Below, piece after piece: positions 608-63,200 of a stretch of 64,000 bases of DNA (within the stretch, counting starts at the first letter, position 1; every line of letters begins with the position of its first letter). The notes beneath the pieces are model-generated. The model saw nothing but the letters and a program-made list of their open reading frames with translations, was not told where the DNA came from and made no database searches. The translations under genes and the position numbers were made by a program. The stretch is from Hygrocybe punicea (lineage: Eukaryota; Basidiomycota; Agaricomycetes; Agaricales; Hygrophoraceae): the NCBI GenBank assembly GCA_963556145.1, contig OY744461.1:1178001-1242000 (forward strand), given 5' to 3'.

Positions 608-3132
608 TCACCCAAATATAATAAGAAATACTGGCCTGATCGCATCATTGGTATACACTACAGTCTCGTTCAATTGGCCGTTGCACCTTTCGAAAACAAC
701 CTGCATATCAAACGAGGGCAGTGACTCAGCTACTACTTCTGAATCCAAGCGAGTAGACGAAACTCACCGAGTGAAAGCCAGGAGGACATGATATGACTTC
801 ATTAAATTGAGTCACATTGCGGGCCTTGCCCAAGACGACCTTGGTCAGAAACATCAATTTCGTCGAAGTATAGTTGGCAGCTCTGAGATGGATCATCAGC
901 GACGATATTACCCAATGATGACACATACTTGTTCGGTGCGGATGAGGTGTAAACACCTGGTCCAAACCTAATAATAACATTTCAGAAAACCATTCTTATC
1001 AAGCCGTATCGAAAAGAGAAAAAGAGAAAAACCCACCCCCCGGTGCTTAGCGCAATGCTTACTTTGAACGACGTCCTGAGGATGGAACAAGCCGCGCAGC
1101 CGCTGGACCTACATAGCTGCAATTGGCCTGGGTCGCCCAAACTGCACTGGCGGTTCGTTCCATGGTAGCGGAAGCATTCGTTCCCGTGTCTGTTCCTGTT
1201 TAAAAAGTGAATCTCACGTCTATTTGCTGACGGAACGAACGGACCGATATGCATCATAGGGGGCAAGAAAAGATGAACTTTCCACAATCTTGTATACGTT
1301 ATGGATTGTCGGACACGGCCCGCTCTGGGGATGATTCCAGGCCTTCTTGAACTTGTTCACTACTATGCATAGAAGGTCATTTCACACACACCATACCAGA
1401 CACACAAGATAACCAACCCATAGTGTGCGTGACATGGCCGGGTTGCACTTCCAAAAGCAATGGCGCACTGTTCATCGCCGAGTCCCTGCATGTTCTACCG
1501 CAAAAATGATATCTACCATTCTTAGGACGGCTGCGACACATGAGACAAGCCGTTCTGGCCTTGTCTCGGCAGGTTTTGCCGCAGTGGGGATGGTTATGAA
1601 TTTTAGGCTTTCGATGGCAATACTATTGAGGATGGGGATCAGATATATACGGTATAATTCGTGTAAACGAGAAGGCGAGGCTCACATCGCACAACAAGTT
1701 ATACTTGCCAGCACAAGTGAGGCCGCAGGTGGGGTACACCTTACGCCCATTCGAACAGCGTGGACGAACACGGCAAACCTAGTCAAAGAAAAGGGGGTAC
1801 TAAGAAATTTGCCAATATCAGGGGTAAATGTAACTCACAACACACATTGAATTAGAACCACCACTAGGCTTCAACCTACGGGCGCATGTCAGCCCGCATG
1901 TCGGATACTTTTTCCCTCCGCGCGAGTAGCTTGGTTGAACGCCACAAACCTGGTCAAAGACGAGATAAACTGTAAACACCAAGGATCTTGGCAAATACCG
2001 TGAAGAAAATGACACTCACGACACACATCGACTTTGAACGGCCGCTGAATTGTAACTGGCCAGCACAGGTAAGCCCACACGTCGGGTACTGTTTCCCTCC
2101 ATTAGAGTATCTTGGTTGAACACCACAAACCTAGTAAGAGGCGAGATGAGTCCAACATACTAAGGGCAAAGAAATCACACTTACCACACACATCGATGAG
2201 GAACCACCTCTGGATTTTAACTTGCCAGCGCAAGTCACTCCGCACGTTGGATACTGTTTCCCTCCTTTCGAGTAGCTGGGTTGAACACCACAGATCTGAA
2301 AAAATAGACCAATGAGTAGCCGTGTAAATTCGCAGCGCCAGCGGTACTTACGACACACATCGGTTTAGCAACACTGGTTTGTAATGCACCATCACCATCA
2401 GACAATGCACCGAAGTGTAAGGCACCACCGGATTGCAATGCACCTCCAGATTGAAACCCACCACTATCGGATAATCCTTGACCACCGGATTGTAAGACAC
2501 CAGCACAAGTCAGCCCGCACGTCGGATACTGTTTCCCGCCCTTCGAATAGCTTGGTCGGACGCCACAAACCTTGGTGAAATAAGTAGCTGCCATTAAGTA
2601 AATGTGCAAATATCGCAAATGAGATGCCACCTACGACACACATCGACTTTGAACGACCGTCAAACTTTAGCAAGGCAGCACAAGTTAGCCCACATGTGGT
2701 AAACTGTTTCCCTCTTTTCGAAAGGCGGGGATTTTTGTGGCAAACCTGAGACCAGTACTACGTCAACAGTTGTATTGAAATTGTAAAAACAAAGCGTACT
2801 ATGCAGAGTGGAATCCCTGGTTGTAGCGCAGGAACAGCGGGACTCTGTGGAACACGCCGACTTGATGAAGCACCCAGATTCGATGGATCATCCTCATCAT
2901 GCTGTGAAGGTTGGCGGGTGACATCGCCGCCATAGATACTGTTGAGCAGACTTTGCGAGCTGCTTTGACTGCTGTCATGGTCAGCGATCAATGCACCCAA
3001 CTCTTCCTCATCTTCCTCATCAAATCCGCCCTCGACGTCACTGCCATAAATACTATTGAAGTCATCATCTGAGTCGGTGTCGGGTGAAGCAACTAAAGTT
3101 TCAGCTGAAGCCCAAGAGGATTCTGCTGGCAT
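608..3132 (-). CDS. PARP catalytic-domain protein with tandem Cys-rich modules
   Basis: ADP-ribosyltransferase of the PARP fold, expected to move ADP-ribose from NAD+ to protein or nucleic acid. The gene has about 13 exons on the minus strand. The first exon (about 2795-3132) is acidic and Ser-rich and ends in LCI. It is followed by phase-0 exons that each join as C-x2-C...YPTCGLTC, then by the modules HPHCGKTC and CLMCRSRPK...FCGRTC. The catalytic part reads FKKAWNHP...VYKI, then FRYHGTNRQCSLGD (catalytic His), FGPGVYTSSAPNKAANY (Tyr), MFLTKVVLGK and LNETVVYTNDAIRP (Glu), ending at the TGA 608-610. The classical H-Y-E triad therefore appears intact. The start is the ATG at 3132, the first Met of the acidic exon. 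The neighbouring PARG is divergent. Exons were joined by eye, and those between 1400 and 1700 are the least certain. Confidence 0.85.
1839..2745 (-). repeat. Array of near-identical 111-bp Cys-module exons
   Basis: Five consecutive exons of the PARP gene (about 2635-2745, 2352-2570, 2185-2295, 2020-2130 and 1839-1949) encode the same module. Each begins at Val-Cys, carries GGKQYPTCGLTCA or a close variant and ends at Met-Cys-Val, so every splice junction rebuilds a C-x2-C pair. Four exons are exactly 111 bp and phase 0. The 2352-2570 exon is longer by 108 bp, a Gly/Ser-rich insert. The spacing of Cys pairs suggests zinc binding (inference). A more diverged copy ends near 1778. Confidence 0.85.
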
Positions 3133-3519
3133 TATCGCAGAGCTGGGTAGGTGAGATCCCTGGAAGACGAGAGGCTGTGGCTGTCAATCACTGGCTCTGT
3201 CCTGGTTTGTATTAAGGGGGAACATGTACCGGCTTGAGTACAAAGATCTAAACTGCAAGGCGATCGGGGCGTCTAGATAGGATAAGAAACCTCCCATGGC
3301 TTGTCGGTGACGCTCGCTAGTTGCGCTCGGCAAGAATGCAAAGAACGGAAGAGAGGGCGCACTCGCCTGGGTCTGCCGCCATGTAATCTGGATTATCTTA
3401 GTGAGAAACTTGGAGCCAAGAAAGAGAAAACGGGTAGAAATGACATACTTGGAGCTGGCTCCACCAGTATCTTAGTTAAGGAAGACTCTGCTGACAGTGT
3501 GGGTGTAGAACTCACTCCG
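3133..3519. promoter_or_regulatory. Shared intergenic region of divergent PARP and PARG genes
   Basis: This 387-bp stretch separates the minus-strand PARP start codon (3132) from the best PARG start codon (3520). It is the only place for both promoters unless the PARG has an upstream 5' exon. The PARG frame is open upstream back to about 3301 without an ATG. An ATG at 3296 runs into a stop after four codons in its own frame, but could begin a short first exon. No clear TATA box was seen. Confidence 0.45.
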
Positions 3520-4458
3520 ATGTCGTTCACAGGCGATAGCGGTCGCGATGCTCTCCGAGACATTGCAGAAACGACACTCTCTGCCATTAGAGCCGGTTCG
3601 TTTTGTCTTAACGACACCTTTTACCTCCTTCGCACGGAAGTTTCGGAGCAGCAAACTCGCTACTTTGCCCCCGACCTTCCGCTTCCCCGATGGACACCAA
3701 TACCCCAACCGCCCAATTCCCTGCAATCTGTTACTCCTACGACAGAAATAAGCATTCGTGAAATCTCCACACTTGAGGCTGCTCGTATGCTGGCTTTCAA
3801 CCCTCGGGGGGATCTCGCCAACCACGGTAGAGTTGGGATCCTTAACTTTGCCTCGGCGACGAAACCTGGTGGTGGATTTCGCAACGGCGCCCGAGCTCAA
3901 GAGGAATCCATCGCTCGTTCATCCACTCTCTACCCAACCCTTATGACTCGTGCCGCGCAGTCGTTTTACCATCTGCATAGGTTTAAATCCAACAATGGCT
4001 ACTACTCTCATGCTTTGATTTTCTCTCCTGGAATTGTGGTTTTCCGTGATGATTACGGGGTTTGGAGAGAGCCGTTTGCAGTTGACGTTCTCACCAGTGC
4101 AGCTGTCAACGCAGGGGAAGTGCGCAAGGCGTTGCGCGGTCACTTACCAAGGAACGTGATAGAGGCCGATATCGAGAGCCAGATGGAGGAGAGAATGTAC
4201 CGTATCCTGCACCTGTTCGAGAGGAGGGGGGTAAAGAATCTCGTATTGGGCAGCTTTGGGACTGGAGTTTTCCGCAACCACGTCAATGTTGTCGCCCGAA
4301 TATGGGCCGATTTATTGGCCGTTCCGGGGGCGCGATTCAGAAACTCTTTTAATCGGGTTGTGTTCGCAGTCATTGGGGAGAAGACATTCGTCGACTTCGC
4401 GGACGCCTTCAATGGTCGCATACGGGACGTACGCCGACCAGAGCCAAGCTATTCTTGA
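3520..4458 (+). CDS. Microbial-type poly(ADP-ribose) glycohydrolase (PARG)
   Basis: Removes ADP-ribose from targets, and so reverses PARP activity. The protein of about 312 aa opens with RDALRDIAETTLSAI and QTRYFAPD, typical of the N-terminal part of the microbial PARG family (PF10021). The macrodomain signature follows: VGILNFASATKPGGGF, then GARAQEES, i.e. the GGG loop followed by the catalytic Gln-Glu-Glu. Further on are SSTLYP, a YSHALIFSPGIVVFRDD strand and the C-terminal LVLGSFGTGVFRN. No break or frameshift is visible, and the core appears to lie in one exon. The start was set at 3520 because it is the first in-frame ATG and just precedes the conserved part; the frame is open further upstream, so a spliced 5' exon is possible. 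Its neighbours on both sides are PARPs. Confidence 0.88.
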   Translation: MSFTGDSGRDALRDIAETTLSAIRAGSFCLNDTFYLLRTEVSEQQTRYFAPDLPLPRWTPIPQPPNSLQSVTPTTEISIREISTLEAARMLAFNPRGDLANHGRVGILNFASATKPGGGFRNGARAQEESIARSSTLYPTLMTRAAQSFYHLHRFKSNNGYYSHALIFSPGIVVFRDDYGVWREPFAVDVLTSAAVNAGEVRKALRGHLPRNVIEADIESQMEERMYRILHLFERRGVKNLVLGSFGTGVFRNHVNVVARIWADLLAVPGARFRNSFNRVVFAVIGEKTFVDFADAFNGRIRDVRRPEPSYS

Positions 4459-5551
4459 GGCCAGAGTCTAGTTTGACCATTGCATTGCTGTACTGTACAC
4501 TCTAATTCTTGTACGATATTTGTAGACAGTGGACTGAGTTTGTTTATCAAAAAAGTTTCGGAAGGATGGTCACTACAAAGCCGAGAGCAAAACTCTCCGC
4601 ATAACATTCAATCAAGGTCCAACGTTCCAGTGGACGGACCGTCTGACCAGTTGACCTCTGGTCTGACTATGGCGCTTGGCTGTCGTTCCGTTTTCCAAGC
4701 ACGCATGGCCAGTCGTATGTTTCAACGGGTGGGGCGCAGGCGCACCTCCTGTAGCAGTCTCAACAAGCCACCCCTGCGCTGCAGTCGTGCTATACCCTAT
4801 TCAGCATCGGGTCCAACATCTCCCAAGCGTCAAGACCACTGCAGGCTCGTGTGCAAATGCCAAGATGGTGTCATTTGCTTCGGGGACCGAGTTTTGGTAA
4901 GTTTTTGATTTGTCCTGCTATAGCTTGACTGCATGGGAACAGTCTTATTCGCTCGACATCTCCAAAGATGTTTTAGTTGGCCTCATGGCCGGACTCCCGG
5001 TTCAGGATTCCAATCCTTTGCCGTTTGCCTTGTAAGTATAATGTTGACCAATCCATGGCTAGCGTTGATGGCCTACATTTCTCACAGTAGACGCCCTGCC
5101 CAGCAACCTACATTATCCACACCAATGAAATCGCTAGTTTGACAGTTTGACTTCATGTCAACTTCGTCCCAACATCCACTTTCACCTCGGTCATCGCGAG
5201 TGCTGATTCGCAAGCCGTCCTCCCAACCGGTCCGCCTACCTTCTCCTAAGCAAGTTCTGAGGAAACCATCCCAGGTGTCCACACTGCGCCCACCACCCAA
5301 ACGACTGCTCACACGTTCATCCCAACAAACACTATCGCGTAAGGTGGTACCAGCGCCGCCTCCCGCAGGAAAACAAGTCCTCAGACGGTCGTCCAAACAG
5401 ACGCAGTCGTCAATATCACCGTTGTTCTCGTTCCTTCTGACCTTGCGGTTCCTGCGCCCGTCGACGAACTATGTGAGTGCTGTTTTTTTCCTTCTCTCCA
5501 ATCTCAGTGTCCGCCTCTTATTGTAATTAACTTACGAATCTCAAATAATGC
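4459..5551 (+). other. Possible 5' exons of the second PARP gene, or a separate decayed gene
   Basis: Two plausible exons join well: about 4670-4899 (ends SFASGTEFW before a GTAAGT donor) and about 4945-5033 (SYSLDISKDVLVGLMAG...). A third stretch, 5155-5470, is open in one frame and encodes a basic Ser/Pro-rich repeat with RKPSSQ, RKPSQ, TRSSQQ and RRSSKQ. A second frame of the same stretch reads like a Thr/Pro-rich linker but holds two TAA stops. A GTGAGT donor near 5473 could splice to the acceptor before 5570. I recognise no family, and which frame is real is unresolved. Confidence 0.35.
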
Positions 5552-6533
5552 ATGTCCTACAAGGCCAGCGTGGTTTGTCTCATGTGTCGATGCCGTCCGA
5601 AGGATGGTGATTACGATTTTTGCGGGCTTGATTGCAGAGACTTGGCGACAGCGACATCGTGTCCGCTGAATATTCCTTCAAACCACATTACATACCAGAA
5701 GGGTAGGTGCTCGCCATTGTGTGTTTTTTTTTGTATGAATCACAGACCGTGATAAAACTGTTCCATTCGTAGTCGAGCGCAAGTTCATCAGTTCCTGGAA
5801 TTGTCCTCAGCGCCGGCGGTGTCCTCAGGTCACACAAGTGTACAAGATTACTGAACGTGCGCCTTTTCGTGCTCGCTATGAAGCATATCGGTATGTGTTG
5901 ACTCCACCAAATCAAATCAATCGAGGGGGTGGGTATTCACCATCGGCGGCAGGCGTCGATATGGTAACGAATCTTTCCGTTATCACGGAACCAAACGCGA
6001 ATGCCAACTTGGGGGCGCAGGCCGCACTAGTCCATGCAGTTCAGTTTCATGTTCAGCATGTTCCATCCTCACCACGTCATTCAAAGTAAGTTTCGCCAAA
6101 TCTGATAGAGCGTAAGTCGTCAGCACGACATGGATTGCAAAGGGGTACATGATTTGCTGACTCAATTCCTCCATCAGGTTTGGGATGGGTATCTATACAT
6201 CGTCTGCCTCAAACAAGTTTGTGTTGTCGTGTTACCTTGTTTGGTTCTTGACGCTGACGACGTGGTCTCAGGGCCGCCAACTATGCTGATAACGGTGTGA
6301 TGTTTCTGACAAAGGTGGTCTTGGGAAAGGTCCGTACTGTGACTCGATTCAACGAAGTCATGTCATGTCCTCCTGGCTACAATTCGGTAAGTCTTGTTGT
6401 GTGCTGATGTAAAGGAGCGATCATCATGGCGCATTTATAGGTGGTCTTTGAAAGATGCAACAATCAATTGAATGAGACAGTTGTGTATATAAATGACGCC
6501 ATCAGACCTGTGTTTCTTATCATGTTTAGGTAA
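5552..6533 (+). CDS. Second PARP catalytic-domain protein
   Basis: Paralogue of the minus-strand PARP gene at 608-3132 with the same exon plan in its catalytic half. Exons read CLMCRCRPKDG...FCGLDCRD (about 5570-5703), VERKFISSWNCPQ...VYKI...YEAYR (about 5773-5890), FRYHGTKRECQLGG (about 5975-6085), FGMGIYTSSASNK (about 6179-6220), KAANYADNGVMFLTKVVLGK (about 6271-6387) and VVFERCNNQLNETVVYIND (6441-6533), ending in TAA. The catalytic His, Tyr and Glu are all present. It keeps only the last Cys module and lacks the 111-bp array. The ATG at 5552 gives a readable frame but is probably inside an exon that is spliced to upstream exons, so the true N-terminus is unknown. Confidence 0.75.
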
Positions 6534-6620
6534 ACAATTTCAGCTCTATCTTTTCTGTATGACTTTTATACCTTGAGTGGACTAGAATTGATAGGTGGTT
6601 AGATGGTTTTTGAGATATTA
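6534..6620. other. 3' flank of second PARP gene
   Basis: Short AT-rich stretch between the PARP stop codon and the first arm of the long inverted repeat. No distinct signal was identified. Confidence 0.3.
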
Positions 6621-7433
6621 CAGCCATTTGTATAAATGATGGCACTTTTTGAAATTTTTTGAATCAATTGAATAATATGGACTTAGACAAATTTTCTGTG
6701 CTCAATCTTGTATCTCATGAAATACTGCATGGATTGACATGGTTACAGAGGGAAAGTTGTACCATTTTCTAAGGGCTATCAGCTCCTGTAATCACATTTG
6801 TACTATATTTAGTGTATGATGAGTGGTGGATGAAATAAAGAGGTAAAGTAGTATTTTTTATGCCCAATATGATATTGTAAAATTATGGTGTCAAAAGAGC
6901 TCCTATGAAGAAGATTGTAGGGAGAAAATTGTTCAGTTTTTCAAGGGCTAGAAGCTCATATACTGTATTTTTCTTCATTTTTGTCCTTTGAGTCAAATAT
7001 TACTCTGTATCATATTTGTTTGTATTGGGCTTGAAATATCATATGAATCATAATTATGGGATCAAAGGACAAAAATGAAGAAAAATATGGTATATGAGCT
7101 TCTAGCCCTTGAAAAACTGAACAATTTTCTCCCTACAATCTTCTTCATAGGAGCTCTTTTGACACCATAATTTTACAATATCATATTGGGCATAAAAAAT
7201 ACTACTTTACCTCTTTATTTCATCCACCACTCATCATACACTAAATATAGTACAAATGTGATTACAGGAGCTGATAGCCCTTAGAAAATGGTACAACTTT
7301 CCCTCTGTAACCATGTCAATCCATGCAGTATTTCATGAGATACAAGATTGAGCACAGAAAATTTGTCTAAGTCCATATTATTCAATTGATTCAAAAAATT
7401 TCAAAAAGTGCCATCATTTATACAAATGGCTGT
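6621..7433. repeat. Long near-perfect inverted repeat (foldback)
   Basis: Left arm about 6621-6991 and right arm about 7062-7433 are reverse complements over roughly 370 bp, with a spacer near 70 bp. The left arm starts acagccatttgta and the right arm ends tacaaatggctgt. Arm identity by eye is very high, with only scattered mismatches. A transcript would form a long double-stranded hairpin. No transposase or target-site duplication was recognised, so it may be a foldback MITE or a recent inverted duplication of a repeat. Confidence 0.85.
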
Positions 7434-7539
7434 AAATAACATACATTTTGAACTTCCAAATGGCTTGAACAACCACACTGGAATGGCCATCCAATTGCAG
7501 CTTGGGTATAGCAAGTTGGACAACATTTAGTGTGGATGA

Positions 7540-8440: not shown

Positions 8441-11400
8441 TTAGCAGTGGATAAACCTTTCACTTCCCTTTCCCTTTCCCTTTCCCTTTCCCCTTCCCCT
8501 TCCCCTTCCCCTTTCCTGTGAAGAACCTTCACTTGACTTATCCTCCCCCTCAATATGACCAAACCAAGTTGTGGCATCCGGATGCCCTGTCTGGACTGGC
8601 AGCATTTGCCGCAGCAACGGTAACCCATATTTCCGAGGATGGTGAATAAAGAGGAAATTTTTTGAGCCATCAATCATTCTTTGGATAGCAACTCTGATGG
8701 GTTCGGTGACACTTCGATATGCAGAAAGACCAACAAAATCAATCTGGTAACGAGGTGCTTCATTGTCCACCCCAGGCCTTCGGAGACCACGCTCATTCGG
8801 CTCGGTGGTCGTCCTGATCCCTTCATCCTCGGTCAGGGCGTAACAATGTACAGCAGCGATATAGGGCAGTCGGTTTCCCTTCGAAAAAATGCCGAGTTTT
8901 TCAGCATGCTGGATTCCAATGATACGAGGATCTGCCGATTGACCCGTCTTATCCTGATTGAGATCCACTGACATGGTTCGCGGGCTCAGTTTGCCGAGAT
9001 CGGAGAAGAAGATAAAATGCACGCGGTCAGTGAGTTCTTGGTTAAGCTGAAGGACTGCAGTCCCACGTAACCAGTTCGCCCACGCATAGCTATCGCGCAT
9101 CGGGGTGGCGTCGTTCGCCTTTGCGTAGTGTGAAAAATGAAAATACGCGGATGCAAACGCCTCTTCGAAAGGTTTTGTGGCAGACTCCTTACTGAGCTGT
9201 GCGCCGTTCGCGGGTACAGACAGACGGAGGATCTCCCATGCTTCGCCCGTAAGTAGTGCCTTGTAGTAGTCTGCGACCGTAACCGGTGTCTGGTATTTGA
9301 GTTCACAGATATGCTCCTGCGCGTTGATGGCCTCATCCATCGCTGTAATACTGAGAACACGACCAATCAGTTGCCCAACAGTGCCTTGAGCGGCCAAGCC
9401 ACCATCGACGAATTCTTCCAACAGACTCCATAAATCCATATATGGCTCCTCATTCCCAGGGTCTCCGATGTAATGGTGCATGATTTGTGCAGACGCCTCT
9501 GCAACGAGAGGCTCAGGGGGTGATCCAGTCACCATTACCGGCGGATTTTGATGAACGGAATATAGCATTCGCAGGTGAGAACGGACCAGTTCGGCTTCAT
9601 GTGCTTGCGCAGCAGCAGAAGCGGGAGAAAGGTCAAGAAGACGAGCAGAAAGTACAGCAATGGATGAAGTATCGAGCTCAGCTGTCCGCTGTGGGGGGCC
9701 AACGGCGGCCACTTAGCTTCTCCCGAACATCCCGCATCATTCTTTCCACGATAGTCTGTTGAGCCTTCCCGGCGGCTTGCAGGGACTGATAGCTAGCGTA
9801 GAACCTACATGATGTGCAAGCACGTAAGAACCAGGCACCATCGTGAATCCAGCCAAGCCAACCTACAATGGTCTTCCAAATCTTGCAGTAAATGCTAGCG
9901 TACCCACGGAGGTTAAACTTTCTTGGCCTGGTGCGAGAGGTTTGGAGATTATATGAACGTCGAATGAGAGCTCTGTGAATGGAACAGGAAGAATACGCTC
10001 GTCGTCCCTTTCTCGCATGGAAGGTGGCACATCTTGCGAGGGGGCAAGTGTGGAGAGGCTGGTTGTGGTGGAGAGGAATAGGGTGCATAAGTTTTTGGAA
10101 ACGGCCTCGTTTAACACAGACTTCAACCGCGAGTACAGCGTATAAGGTTGCTGAGCTTCCTGTCCACGCGGATTGAACAGAACGTGTATCTCATCCATCG
10201 AAATAAGGATGGGACAAATTGTGGCAGGCCACTCGATACAACGCTGCTTCAAAAGGTTTTGCAAATCGTCGAAAGGCTGCCACACCCGCCCTTTGGAAGG
10301 GCTAAGCTTGCTGTGCGCGATGACCTGCCGGTAAAATTCACCTCTCTGGGACGGGACATTGAAGAATTCATGGAATGCCGTAGCCATGGCCATGTAGGGC
10401 GTCTTTGTATCGACCGGGAAGAGATTCTCAACTTGACGATATGCGATCGTGAAGACAGCGTTTAAAAATGACCTGATATATTGTTTACATTCTCTTTCTT
10501 GTGACGCGCTGGGCGCGGCAAGAAGATGGTCGCGAACTAAAACGTCGGTGGGTGGATATGCTGAAGTAAACGTTCAGCAATGCATTGCAAGCGGATGTAT
10601 CACCCGTGCCACGTACCAAAATAATCCTCACCAAGATCTTCACGTAAACATACAGGGAAGAGAATTCGTTGTGTGGCGACCTTGTCGACCGTTTTGGATT
10701 TACCTGTTCCTGACGATTGCGATATAAGGAAAAAAGTTTGGCGTAATGACGCTCTACCTGTAGTCCGTGGATTTCATCTACGGCCATGAGTAGGACTTTG
10801 TCGGCATCGCCAAGGTACTCCGACATCCAAGCATCGATTACGGCTGGATGATCACAACGAATCTGATGAGAGTGAATTGGCTGAAGTGATTGACACAAAC
10901 GTACCATTCTCTGAGCAGTGGCAAATAACGGTAGTGATTGAGTAAAAAACACTCAACAAGATGCATCAGCCTACTTACTTTGTTCAATCGGAACACCTAC
11001 GGCCGCTGCCACTGTTCGGCTGGGATTCCGAAGAATTTCTGTATTGGCATTAGAGGACGGCTACCGTTCAAAAGGATACAAATATCGAACCCAAATTCCG
11101 TATCTCCTTGAATGTTCTAGCTCTCCACGCTTCACATAACTTCTCCACCAGCTGTGGATGATCTCGCACCAGAGCGCGAGCGCTTAGGATATCCTTATAC
11201 TTAGGATTGAGATATCCCTCTGACGCCGATACAATTATGCTAAGAAGGGCGGCAACGGAATAGGGGTTAGTACCAGATGGTTCAAAAGGTATGTATTTGA
11301 ACGCCAAGTTGTCCCCAGCAGCATGAGCGGCATCGTCGAGCTCGTCCGGTAGTGTTTGTAGCGTAGTCTCCAGAATACGTTTAGTGACGGAAGGGTCATC

Positions 11401-60247: not shown

Positions 60248-63200
60248 ATGTCCTCCAAAGTTTCCATACCCTCCCATCTCTCTCTCTACACTTTTAACCA
60301 CCGACGCAGGCAAGGCAACGTCACAGGTGCCACCGGCAAGGTCGACAGCGACTCTGATGAGGGCATTGACCTGTTGCCCACCAGTGATTCCTCTCACTCT
60401 ACTCCCTCGAAAGTGGACATACATCCTGGAATCCAAGCAAATAAACGTATGCGAGGTGTCCATGGGACTGCAGATCCTGACTCGGACGATGAGCTTGAAA
60501 CAGGATTTTGTGTTGATGGATTGTCTGGGCGTGCCACCACGTCGTATGAGGCATTTTCAAGTTATACTAAGCGACACAAAGCTGTTCCACCGGTGGATGC
60601 TGCTCCGCATGTCGCTCCACCAACCCCTCAACCATTCGTGTCACAATCTCCTCTGGATGAGAAGAAGCGTAAACAGGTACGTTTCTCTTATCACTTAGAA
60701 ATAAAAAACTCAGTAAATTTTTCTTAGGGTGCCTCCGTTATGATGAAGATATTCTCTGGCTGACTCGAGGAGCTGCAGGACGCTATTTTGGAACACAGTT
60801 CTGACCCGCATACTGGCAAACGTTGTGCATGCGGCTTGGACGTCTCTCGTTTCCGCTGTCATGAATGTTTTGATCTGGAACCATGCTGCCAATCGTGTCT
60901 CCTTGCTGAGCATCAACAACAGCTGTTTCACCGTGTCCAGGAGTGGGTGGGTGGGCATTTCATTAAGCATGATCTGGGTGAGCTTGGACACACACTTTTT
61001 CTTGGCCATTGCACTCGCCGTTGCCCAAACACTCTTTCATCAACTGAAGGCCATCAAACGACAATTATCCACACAAATGGAATCCATGTTCAACATATTG
61101 TGTATTGCTCCTGCAATTTAGTGAGTGAACCACTGCAATTGGCACACAGCAGACTTTTCCCAGCCATGATCGATCAGCCAGAAACTGTCTTCACATTTTC
61201 TGTGCTCAACGACTTCCACCTCCACACCCTTGCCTCCAAAAAGTCAGCATACAATCATTTTCAGGCCCTTCGGAAACATACCAACAATCCTTTTGCTCAC
61301 AACTGCCCAGTACGTATGAGACCAATCATGTGGAATCATAAGCTAACTGTTGACCAGGATCGCTACTGTCAATTTCTCTATGTCAGCCGTATTTGGTGCC
61401 ATCTTGCAGCCATCCGTCGTTCAGGGCAGGCTCATGGTATTGACTCCATTCTCACCCTTTGGCGCCCTGGCTCCCTGACTGTTCGTTGTCCGGCATGCCC
61501 CAAAGTTGGTGTCAACATCAACGAGCAAACTTTGGCATTGGCATCGCCTAAGGACAAGTAAGTTATCTGTTGTATAATCTTTTGGTGAGCAACTGATCTT
61601 GTGTAAACACCAGACATAAATACATGATGACTATCAGTCTTGATGGGAACTTCAAAGCAATATGCCTAAAGACAACCAAGGAAGACCCAGATGATGTAGC
61701 TCTGGCTGATGGCAAAGGCATTTTTGTTGAAAACACCAAGTATCTTACCTATCTTTCAAATGTGGGCAATTCCCCTGATGTGAGTGTTCTGGTCATGATC
61801 AAAGTTATAGATCTGATGTGATTACTCCCTAGAAATCAACCTGCACACGCCTCAAAGCCATTGAAATGCAGAATGTGACTAGGTACAAAGGTGCTGTGAT
61901 TACAGGGGTGGTGGCAGCTCAGTGCGCTCGTCATGGTGTGTTCATTCAGATGGTGGACCTTCAAAAAGGCGAACGGTAAGATCTTAGTGGTAAGCCGTTG
62001 AGTCAGGGTGCTTATAGATTTTCAGATATGCCAACTCCGACTACGTTCTCGTCTTAGCCCTGCGGGAAATGAAGCTATTGCCCTGGCTTACTTATGACAT
62101 CGAGTGCCAACACAGTATCAATTGCACAGCCCGGTTCTTAAAATGGTTCCCAGATCTCATTCCAGTACTTGAACGAATGCAGGGATGTATTCCAAAAGCC
62201 CACCTTCGGAACCATAAGGACGACTGTCAGTATCGATTCTCTTTCAATTATACTGAAGGTGTTGGGCGGACTTGTGGGGAAGTTATCGAGACATTTTGGG
62301 TCGAGGAGAATCAGATATCGGGAAGTACGAAGCACCAGAATGATGGACACCGCCATGATAATCTTGACGACTACAATAATTTCTGGAATTGGGAAAAATC
62401 CATAAAGATGCGTAAGTATTCCTAGTGATTCTATCATGACTATTCGAAGGCTAATTGAGCCATTCACTTAGCACATTCCCTCTATTGTCAGTACACTAAC
62501 AATCTTCCAATATTGAAGAAGGCAATGCAACAGTTTGATGCACTTTGTGCGCGCTATGGTCTAGAACTAGTGTCTCGGTGGGAGGCCATGGATACGAAAC
62601 CTCGGTTGGAAAATGGTCATTGGGTTAGCGTATTTTGCTCAAAGTATGTCAGCAAAGGTAAGAGACCTTTGATCTTTCAGAAATGATGCACTCACAACCA
62701 TGCCAGCACCTCCCACACAGGGCCATGTTTTCCAAGACCTTTGCCAGCAAGAGTACATTGCTGAGCTTTCTGGCTGAAGCAAAGGAACTGGAGTTGCACA
62801 ATTTATCAATACAGGACTGCGGATCGAAGCCAAGCAGTGAGTATTTCAAAACAATCTAATTTATTGCGAAATTCATATGCATATCCAGGTTGTGAATCAG
62901 GAAGCTATCCCAGGTTACAGATAAATCTGATACCAAAGAGCGAACGCTAACAGCTGGATGTGCCAAACTACAACGTGATATAAAAAAAGTGGCGGGAATT
63001 CCAACACAAGCAGTATCCCCAATTACGTGACCTAATCCCGCTGGTCGAGATGTTGGCTCCGGAGGACAATAGTCTTTTGTTGCCATCAGCACTGCCACGA
63101 GAATCGAGAACACGCCTCCAGCTATCCGAACTTGCTGTAATCGAATATGCTCTTCGTGAAGGGCAAGCACACGATGCACTCAATCACATACGCGATGCTG

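What the first reader, a model, noticed from the sequence alone, without database searches (positions are those of the whole stretch)
608..6533. PARP-PARG-PARP island: writer, eraser and second writer in one locus
A PARP gene (minus), a microbial-type PARG (plus) and a second PARP (plus) lie in 6 kb. Both PARPs keep the H-Y-E triad (YHGT, G[VM][GY]VY/GIY context, LNETVVY) and the PARG keeps GGG and QEE. PARG and PARP families are known; their tight physical linkage, with the PARG between two PARPs and a shared promoter region with the first, suggests an inducible self-contained ADP-ribosylation module, possibly for defence, stress or conflict with selfish DNA. I am not aware of a description of such a locus.
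Basis: partly seen in the sequence, partly recalled or inferred. Interest (0 to 1): 0.9.

Follow-up and report, generated by a model that had tools for sequence, protein, structure and literature searches.

The report
Linked ADP-ribose writer-eraser genes in mushrooms
In this mushroom-type fungus, two enzymes that attach ADP-ribose tags sit on either side of the enzyme that removes them, and a similar pairing recurs in distantly related mushrooms, which suggests an inherited on/off switch whose purpose is not yet known.

Summary
The locus is real: PARP1 (minus, 608-3132), a single-exon bacterial-type PARG (plus, 3520-4458) and PARP2 (plus, 5155-6534) all have open spliced frames. Both PARPs keep H-Y-E; the PARG keeps GGG-X7-QEE. 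Of 16 named Agaricomycete species with both gene types in the listed hits, 14 have a PARG and a Cys-module PARP or PARP-like gene on contigs of equal length (10 with an H-Y-E or nearly complete one, 4 only with a catalytically altered one). Tight cases: Gymnopilus dilepis (16.9-kb contig; tags PARP 8116, PARG 8120, PARP-like 8122) and Piloderma (43.8 kb; tags 2 apart). The linked PARGs lie outside a supported 29-row clade of unlinked PARGs that includes this genome's second PARG. In 9 of the 14 the PARG contig carries a PARP relative without the catalytic His and Tyr. Linkage is not obligatory: two other PARP clusters and two other PARGs in this genome stand apart. Best reading: a conserved writer-eraser cluster with a built-in off switch; a defence or poison-antidote role is possible but untested. 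Ten open-access literature searches listed no description. New variant of a known kind.

The parts
608..3132 (-). PARP1 gene, 13 exons (3132-2800, 2745-2635, 2570-2352, 2295-2185, 2130-2020, 1949-1839, 1778-1686, 1622-1418, 1359-1245, 1195-1037, 967-929, 882-768, 700-608), 604 aa: acidic N-terminus, 8 Cys modules, ART domain with H-Y-E
   Evidence: gene model; triad; modules; PF00644 24.2 bits, below cut-off
1418..2745 (-). Exons 2-8 of PARP1 with the Cys modules (six C-x2-C-x15-C-x3-C and two C-x2-C-x11-C-x3-C). Exons 2-7 have phase-0 introns on both sides and about one repeat unit each, the intron falling inside the first Cys pair of a module
   Evidence: exon phases and translation; module list; zinc binding inferred
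3133..3519 (.). 387-base region between the divergent start codons of PARP1 and PARG (possible shared promoter)
3520..4458 (+). Bacterial-type (microbial) PARG, single exon, 312 aa, GGG-X7-QEE
   Evidence: PF10021; TIGR02452; solved PARG 3sig, E 4.9e-31
5155..6534 (+). PARP2 gene, 7 exons (5155-5472, 5564-5702, 5773-5890, 5953-6111, 6178-6216, 6272-6386, 6441-6534), 326 aa: basic Pro-rich N-terminus (net +20, no acidic residue over 110 aa), one Cys module, ART domain with H-Y-E
   Evidence: PF00644 31.9 bits; charge

Best explanation
A conserved ADP-ribose writer-eraser gene cluster of mushroom-forming fungi. The PARPs carry Cys modules, probably zinc-binding recognition units, that bring an H-Y-E ADP-ribosyltransferase to a trigger or target; NAD+ is then used to attach ADP-ribose. 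The neighbouring bacterial-type PARG removes chains or 2'-OH-linked ADP-ribose and so limits the signal or its toxicity. Sitting side by side keeps writer and eraser inherited together and perhaps expressed together. In many relatives a PARP-like gene on the same contig has lost the catalytic His and Tyr but kept the Cys modules and the fold, probably a reader, scaffold or decoy; in this genome the second place is held by another apparently active PARP with an oppositely charged tail. Shown: gene structures, intact signatures, recurrent same-contig linkage, a separate clade of unlinked PARGs, altered catalytic residues in the paralogues. Inferred: zinc binding, substrate, co-regulation, biological role.
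For: Gene models and signatures. Same-contig linkage in 14 of 16 species, 0.77 expected under random placement in an assumed 40-Mb genome. The 16 linked PARG rows in the tree (15 from 14 species, and the window) fall outside a 29-row clade of unlinked PARGs (98 bootstrap / 93 SH-aLRT); 4 label changes against a shuffled mean of 13.5, minimum 7 in 2000. AlphaFold models of an active and of a His/Tyr-less relative match PARP ART structures in Foldseek with probability 1.00. PARG aligns to solved PARGs through the catalytic loop. The 4-Cys site inside the ART domain is complete in 50 of 52 H-Y-E rows and 23 of 23 His/Tyr-less rows.
Against: Linkage is not obligatory: the C34 and C40 PARP clusters of the same genome have no PARG match nearby, and its C36 and C35 PARGs no PARP match in the fetched 20 kb. 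In 4 of the 14 linked species the only PARP relative listed on the PARG contig is a catalytically altered one. Fibroporia has PARG and PARPs on different contigs; Phlegmacium, Piloderma, G. dilepis and Pholiota conissans also have PARPs on other contigs. For Hebeloma, Flammula, coprinoid species and others no PARG was in the listed hits (120 best of each search), so linkage there is unknown. No activity, expression or phenotype data.
Confidence: 0.7

Rival explanations
1. Stress or DNA-damage regulon: the cluster is ordinary poly(ADP-ribose) metabolism whose two halves were brought together for coordinated dosage, with no role in conflict.
For: Basidiomycota representatives have bacterial-type PARG without the canonical type (Perina 2014, PMC4245714, passages). 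Closest solved relatives of the active PARPs are PARP3, tankyrases and PARP1. The Deinococcus PARG is in a putative three-gene operon induced after DNA damage (PMC11833690, passages).
Against: Pfam finds no DNA-repair PARP domain such as WGR in the two window PARPs at E <= 1. Copy-variable Cys modules, His/Tyr-less paralogues and a separate unlinked PARG clade are not what a plain housekeeping pair needs (inference).
Confidence: 0.35
2. Conflict module: PARPs modify nucleic acid or protein of an invader (virus, transposon, incompatible nucleus) or shut down the cell; PARG protects self; His/Tyr-less PARPs sense or decoy. A functional analogue of DarTG.
For: [quoted passage not shown] coli from an ART toxin (PMC11833690, passages). 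His/Tyr-less paralogues keep Cys modules. The same modules occur on two RBR-type E3 ligase-like proteins of Hypholoma and Pholiota. The number of listed PARPs varies between species.
Against: No PADLOC match for PARG, P0129 or P0192. No expression, toxicity or selection data. A term search in a survey of fungal NLR effector domains gave no PARP, ADP-ribos-, macro domain or NAD (PMC9815663).
Confidence: 0.33
3. Chance or hitch-hiking: neighbours without functional link, kept together by slow local rearrangement.
For: Six of the 14 linked species have the shared contig over 1 Mb, where sharing alone is weak evidence. Linkage within related Agaricales may be one inherited event.
Against: Short contigs (16.9, 43.8, 89.6, 129.8, 215.7, 252.7, 263.2, 302.2 and 381.4 kb) and neighbouring tags in several species; linkage also in Piloderma, Phlebopus, Botryobasidium and the window lineage.
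Confidence: 0.06

Closest known systems
Bacterial-type (microbial) PARG, PF10021 / TIGR02452 / DUF2263
   Same: Near whole-length match and GGG-X7-QEE signature
   Different: In the papers read it is a single gene or in a bacterial repair operon; here it sits between two PARPs
PARP/ARTD H-Y-E enzymes (tankyrase, PARP3, PARP1)
   Same: H-Y-E triad in the window PARPs; ART fold in the model of a relative
   Different: No ankyrin, WGR or PARP zinc-finger domain found at E <= 1; instead Cys modules and a 4-Cys site inside the ART domain
PARP6/8 clade with putative zinc motif CX2CX9-19CX4C (Perina 2014, PMC4245714, passages)
   Same: A Cys-rich motif of similar spacing before the PARP domain
   Different: Here CX2CX11-15CX3C, 8 copies in window PARP1 and 1 in PARP2; no UBCc domain, which Perina reports for Basidiomycota PARP6/8
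SirTM-macrodomain pairs of bacteria and fungi (review PMC7050489, passages)
   Same: Linked writer and ADP-ribose-hydrolase genes, also in fungi
   Different: Writer is a sirtuin and eraser a zinc-containing MacroD-type domain; the window genes matched neither in Pfam
DarTG toxin-antitoxin; RhsP2 opposed by PARG
   Same: ART opposed by a macrodomain-fold hydrolase; PARG can act as immunity protein (PMC11833690, passages; DarTG from its passages and the listing)
   Different: Different ART families and bacterial hosts; no toxicity shown here
'Additional' Fusarium PARPs without H-Y-E (PMC11569842, passages)
   Same: Catalytically altered PARP paralogues in a fungus
   Different: Different lineage; the passages read give no linkage to PARG

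Membership tests
Bacterial-type PARG | PF10021 / TIGR02452 match over the curated cut-off | tested here: met
   124.5 bits against 23.5; 194.2 against 50
Bacterial-type PARG | GGG-X6-8-QEE catalytic signature | tested here: met
   GGGFRNGARAQEE in the window PARG; alignment to 3sig; signature as stated in PMC4245714
Bacterial-type PARG | Hydrolysis of poly(ADP-ribose) | not testable with these tools
   needs biochemistry
PARP (H-Y-E ART) | PF00644 over cut-off | tested here: inconclusive
   PARP2 31.9 bits (met), PARP1 24.2 (below 26.7)
PARP (H-Y-E ART) | H-Y-E triad at aligned positions | tested here: met
   both window PARPs; 52 of 92 aligned rows in all
PARP (H-Y-E ART) | ART fold | tested here: met
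   tested on the relative P0129, not on the window proteins: model mean pLDDT 75.7, matches tankyrase, E 1.5e-11, prob 1.00
Clade 1 DNA-repair PARP | WGR domain with PARP regulatory domain | tested here: not met
   at E <= 1 only PF00644 and, in PARP1, one sub-threshold zinc-finger match
Clade 6 PARP6/8 | CX2CX9-19CX4C motif, UBCc domain in Basidiomycota | tested here: not met
   modules end in CX3C; no UBCc at E <= 1
DarTG-like toxin-antitoxin | ART and reversing-hydrolase genes adjacent | tested here: met
   window models; same-contig linkage in relatives
DarTG-like toxin-antitoxin | DarT/DarG families | tested here: not met
   no PADLOC match for PARG, P0129 or P0192, window PARPs not scanned there; Pfam gives PARG and PARP families
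DarTG-like toxin-antitoxin | Toxicity of the ART relieved by the hydrolase | not testable with these tools
   needs expression tests

The most novel reading that the evidence does not exclude
A nuclear-encoded eukaryotic ADP-ribosylation immune or poison-antidote system: active PARPs act as effector, bacterial-type PARG as antidote, and Cys-module pseudo-PARPs as sensors or decoys, spread through mushroom-forming fungi and used against viruses, transposons or foreign nuclei.
Probability: 0.2. Interest if true: 0.87.

Novelty: new variant of a known kind. Interest (0 to 1): 0.62.

Why it matters
In the papers read here, writer and eraser of poly(ADP-ribose) are treated as separate genes. A linkage that recurs across several orders of mushroom-forming fungi, with a separate clade of unlinked PARGs and His/Tyr-less PARP paralogues beside the linked ones, makes it testable whether a eukaryote has a dedicated, co-inherited ADP-ribosylation switch, and whether bacterial-type PARG, shown to protect bacteria from an ART toxin, plays a similar part in fungi.

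Tried and rejected
PF00644 against the whole genome found only C34 and C40, because introns cut the domain; an exon-level protein query was needed. The C7 candidate (29% identity, E 0.08) and the weak C3 PF10021 match (E 0.72) were dropped: tblastn with the PARP hits found nothing on the fetched C7 stretch, and with the PARG hits nothing on the fetched C3 stretch. A His/Tyr-less PARP in this genome was sought once, with P0192: the matches were Cys modules and the known PARP loci, plus one Cys-module-like exon on C35. Pfam on single Cys modules gave only sub-threshold matches to several families, so the module is left unnamed. PADLOC gave nothing. Equal contig length (2560) of metagenome hits P0103 and P0135 was set aside as possibly chance. 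The 3' palindrome was considered as part of the locus and rejected: it is a dispersed repeat.

Limits of the counts. The PARP search scored only the 7993 candidates sharing most words; each PARG search listed 120 of its hits. The seed of the third search (P0076) was chosen because it was already linked, which favours linked relatives; alone give 4 linked of 5 species. The 23 His/Tyr-less rows were picked by me from the motif listing, so their lack of His is by construction; their separate branching is shown for the 19 of 23 put in that tree. The PARG tree used 50 of 208 PARG hits, chosen by me (mostly named species, one or two a genus), plus the window and C36 PARGs; the distant C35 PARG was left out. 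Hits without a species name were not used for linkage. The 92 aligned PARP rows include two RBR-ligase hits and some fragments. Relatives of G000 are not held, so gene maps could not be compared.
Full report
What is there. The window lies in a 92.2-Mb genome in 42 contigs (C1:1178001-1242000); the intron-rich genes and the species of the nearest named relatives point to a mushroom-forming fungus (inference). Reading the first 8 kb and splicing by GT-AG rules gave two complete PARP genes and one PARG. PARP1 runs on the minus strand from ATG 3132 to a stop ending at 608 in 13 exons and 604 aa. It has an acidic N-terminus (net charge -20 over 109 aa), eight Cys modules, and a catalytic domain with YHGT, GVYTSS and LNETVVY. 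Six modules are C-x2-C-x15-C-x3-C and two are C-x2-C-x11-C-x3-C. Exons 2-7 have phase-0 introns on both sides and about one repeat unit each, an arrangement suited to exon duplication (inference). PARG is a single exon at 3520-4458 with GGG-X7-QEE; PF10021 E 5.7e-36, TIGR02452 E 2.8e-57, best solved relative the PARG 3sig at E 4.9e-31. PARP2 runs on the plus strand in 7 exons, 5155-6534, 326 aa, with a Pro-rich basic tail (net +20, no acidic residue over 110 aa) and one module. The two PARPs are 62% identical over 221 aa, with 67-77% DNA identity in the six exons compared. Further upstream starts of PARG and PARP2 were not excluded.

Are the PARPs PARPs? Pfam PF00644 passes for PARP2 and just fails for PARP1. 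A profile of 38 H-Y-E relatives finds PARP3, tankyrases and PARP1 in the PDB sequence set (best E 1.7e-8). The AlphaFold model of the Piloderma relative P0129 (mean pLDDT 75.7, pTM 0.64) matches tankyrase catalytic domains (Foldseek E 1.5e-11, prob 1.00; TM-score normalised to the target about 0.7). The window proteins themselves were not modelled. Inside the ART domain a 4-Cys site (C-x10-C-x4-C-x2-C) is complete in 50 of 52 H-Y-E rows and 23 of 23 His/Tyr-less rows. I infer zinc binding.

Is the linkage conserved? Protein searches with the window PARG (2328 hits, 120 listed), with PARP1 (90 hits; only the 7993 best-matching candidates scored) and with the Crassisporium PARG (1861 hits, 120 listed) show, for many hits, species, locus tag and contig length. 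Sixteen named species appear in both gene lists. In 14 a PARG and a Cys-module PARP or PARP-like protein share a contig length: Phlebopus FC_14, Piloderma croceum, Crassisporium funariophilum, Gymnopilus junonius, G. dilepis, Galerina marginata, Phlegmacium glaucopus, Psilocybe cyanescens, P. cf. subviscida, P. cubensis, Pholiota conissans, Crepidotus variabilis, Cyclocybe aegerita and Botryobasidium botryosum (on two contigs). The two misses are Fibroporia radiculosa (different contigs; the PARG listed for it is of the unlinked clade) and Agrocybe chaxingu (contigs of 13.9 and 8.8 kb, too short to tell). Tightest cases: G. dilepis, 16.9-kb contig, tags PARP 008116, PARG 008120, His/Tyr-less PARP 008122; Piloderma, 43.8-kb contig, tags 829822 (PARP) and 829824 (PARG); P. 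subviscida 011837 (PARG), 011840 (His/Tyr-less), 011841 (PARP); Galerina 245584 (PARG) and 245586 (PARP); and, with a His/Tyr-less partner, P. cubensis 0010933/0010934 and Crepidotus 858605/858606. Tag numbers suggest but do not prove gene order. Under random placement in an assumed 40-Mb genome the expected number is 0.77 of 16. The tail probability there (7e-23) treats species as independent, which they are not, so I rest on the spread over lineages: Agaricales, Boletales, Atheliales and Cantharellales (orders recalled, not from a call), plus the window lineage. The third search was seeded with a PARG already known to be linked; alone give 4 linked of 5.

A separate PARG clade. In a tree of 52 PARGs (50 of 208 hits, chosen by me, plus the window and C36 PARGs), 29 rows form a clade (bootstrap 98, SH-aLRT 93) that holds none of the 16 linked rows but does hold the C36 PARG of this genome, that of Fibroporia, and those of Trametes, Suillus, Lyophyllum and others for which no Cys-module PARP was listed. 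Outside it, three named rows are not known to be linked (Pholiota molesta, Agrocybe chaxingu, A. pediades). Linked status changes 4 times on the tree against a shuffled mean of 13.5 (minimum 7 in 2000). 'Not linked' includes species in which no such PARP was listed. The tree is unrooted, so which state is older is open.

Altered partners. Among 92 aligned PARP rows (90 hits and the two window proteins) 52 are H-Y-E. A set of 23 rows has Leu, Ile, Val, Met or Phe for His and no Tyr at the second position, yet mostly keeps Glu (14) or Asp (7) at the third. I picked this set from the motif listing; the 19 of 23 placed in a tree group together (SH-aLRT 93). The model of P0192 (mean pLDDT 71.8, pTM 0.54) still matches PARP ART domains (prob 1.00). 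Of the 14 linked species, 9 have such a paralogue on the PARG contig and 2 (Botryobasidium, Phlebopus) a variant with His-His at the first two triad positions. Seven have an active and an altered copy there, three only an active one (Piloderma, G. junonius, and Phlegmacium, whose protein model ends before the third triad residue), four only an altered one (P. cubensis, Crepidotus, Cyclocybe, Botryobasidium). One search of the window's genome found no His/Tyr-less PARP.

What speaks against a fixed unit. The same genome has clusters of three PARP-like genes at C34:6067682-6072085 and C40:747019-751825, the middle one on the opposite strand, with no PARG match in the 28 and 27 kb fetched there; its PARGs at C36 and C35 have no PARP match in the 20 kb fetched around each. 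Phlegmacium, Piloderma, G. dilepis and Pholiota conissans have PARPs on contigs other than the PARG's as well. For Hebeloma, Flammula, Coprinopsis, Coprinellus, Ephemerocybe, Candolleomyces, Panaeolus and Hypholoma no PARG was among the listed hits, so their linkage is unknown.

Mechanism. From established enzymology, PARPs with H-Y-E can use NAD+ to attach ADP-ribose, and PARGs cleave the 2'-OH to C1'' link, in chains or on RNA (PMC11833690, passages). The most economical reading is a co-inherited switch: Cys modules choose where the PARP acts, PARG ends the signal or protects self, and altered paralogues bind the same trigger or product without catalysis. Modules of the same kind sit on two RBR-type E3-like proteins (P0205, P0209), which fits a targeting role. 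Whether the trigger is damage, virus, transposon or a foreign nucleus cannot be told from sequence.

Literature. Ten full-text searches of the open-access library listed no title, and I read no passage, that describes a fungal PARP-PARG cluster; some searches had thousands of hits of which 12-20 were listed, and most subscription papers are not in the library. Perina 2014 (PMC4245714; passages, abstract and outline) reports bacterial-type PARG without canonical PARG in Basidiomycota representatives and a Cys motif in PARP6/8. Citarelli 2010 (PMC2964712; passages) finds clade 1 and 6 PARPs in some Agaricomycotina. A gene-order survey (PMC2871058; passages) names PARP only in a reference. Also seen as passages: PMC11833690, PMC7050489, PMC3482391, PMC11569842; a term search in PMC9815663 gave no match.

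Noticed in passing
window 6618-7002 and 7051-7435: Near-perfect palindrome (385-nt arms, 98% complementary, 48-nt spacer) 83 bases after the PARP2 stop; 83 matches listed across the own genome, many as paired arms, so a dispersed fold-back repeat.
   Followed up: partly
window 60764-61558 +: CxC2 cysteine cluster of the kind associated with KDZ transposases (PF18803, E 1.3e-25).
   Followed up: no
own genome C34:6067682-6072085 and C40:747019-751825 (L021, L024): Two clusters of three PARP-like genes each, the middle one on the opposite strand and with an altered His motif (TYHSSQ / TFHSAQ).
   Followed up: partly
P0205, P0209 (Hypholoma sublateritium, Pholiota conissans): Cys modules like those of the PARPs also occur, three in a row, at the N-terminus of proteins with RING-like and IBR domains (RBR-type E3 ligases).
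   Followed up: partly
P0163 (metagenome protein): One-module PARP preceded by a stretch that looks by eye like several transmembrane segments; may be a membrane-bound form or a gene-prediction fusion.
   Followed up: no
window 8441-10573 -: Two long open frames without a Pfam match over its cut-off.
   Followed up: no
own genome C35:443494-443598 and C3:383393-383482: Further single Cys-module-like exons outside the PARP loci (E 0.0009 and 0.012; C35 also).
   Followed up: no
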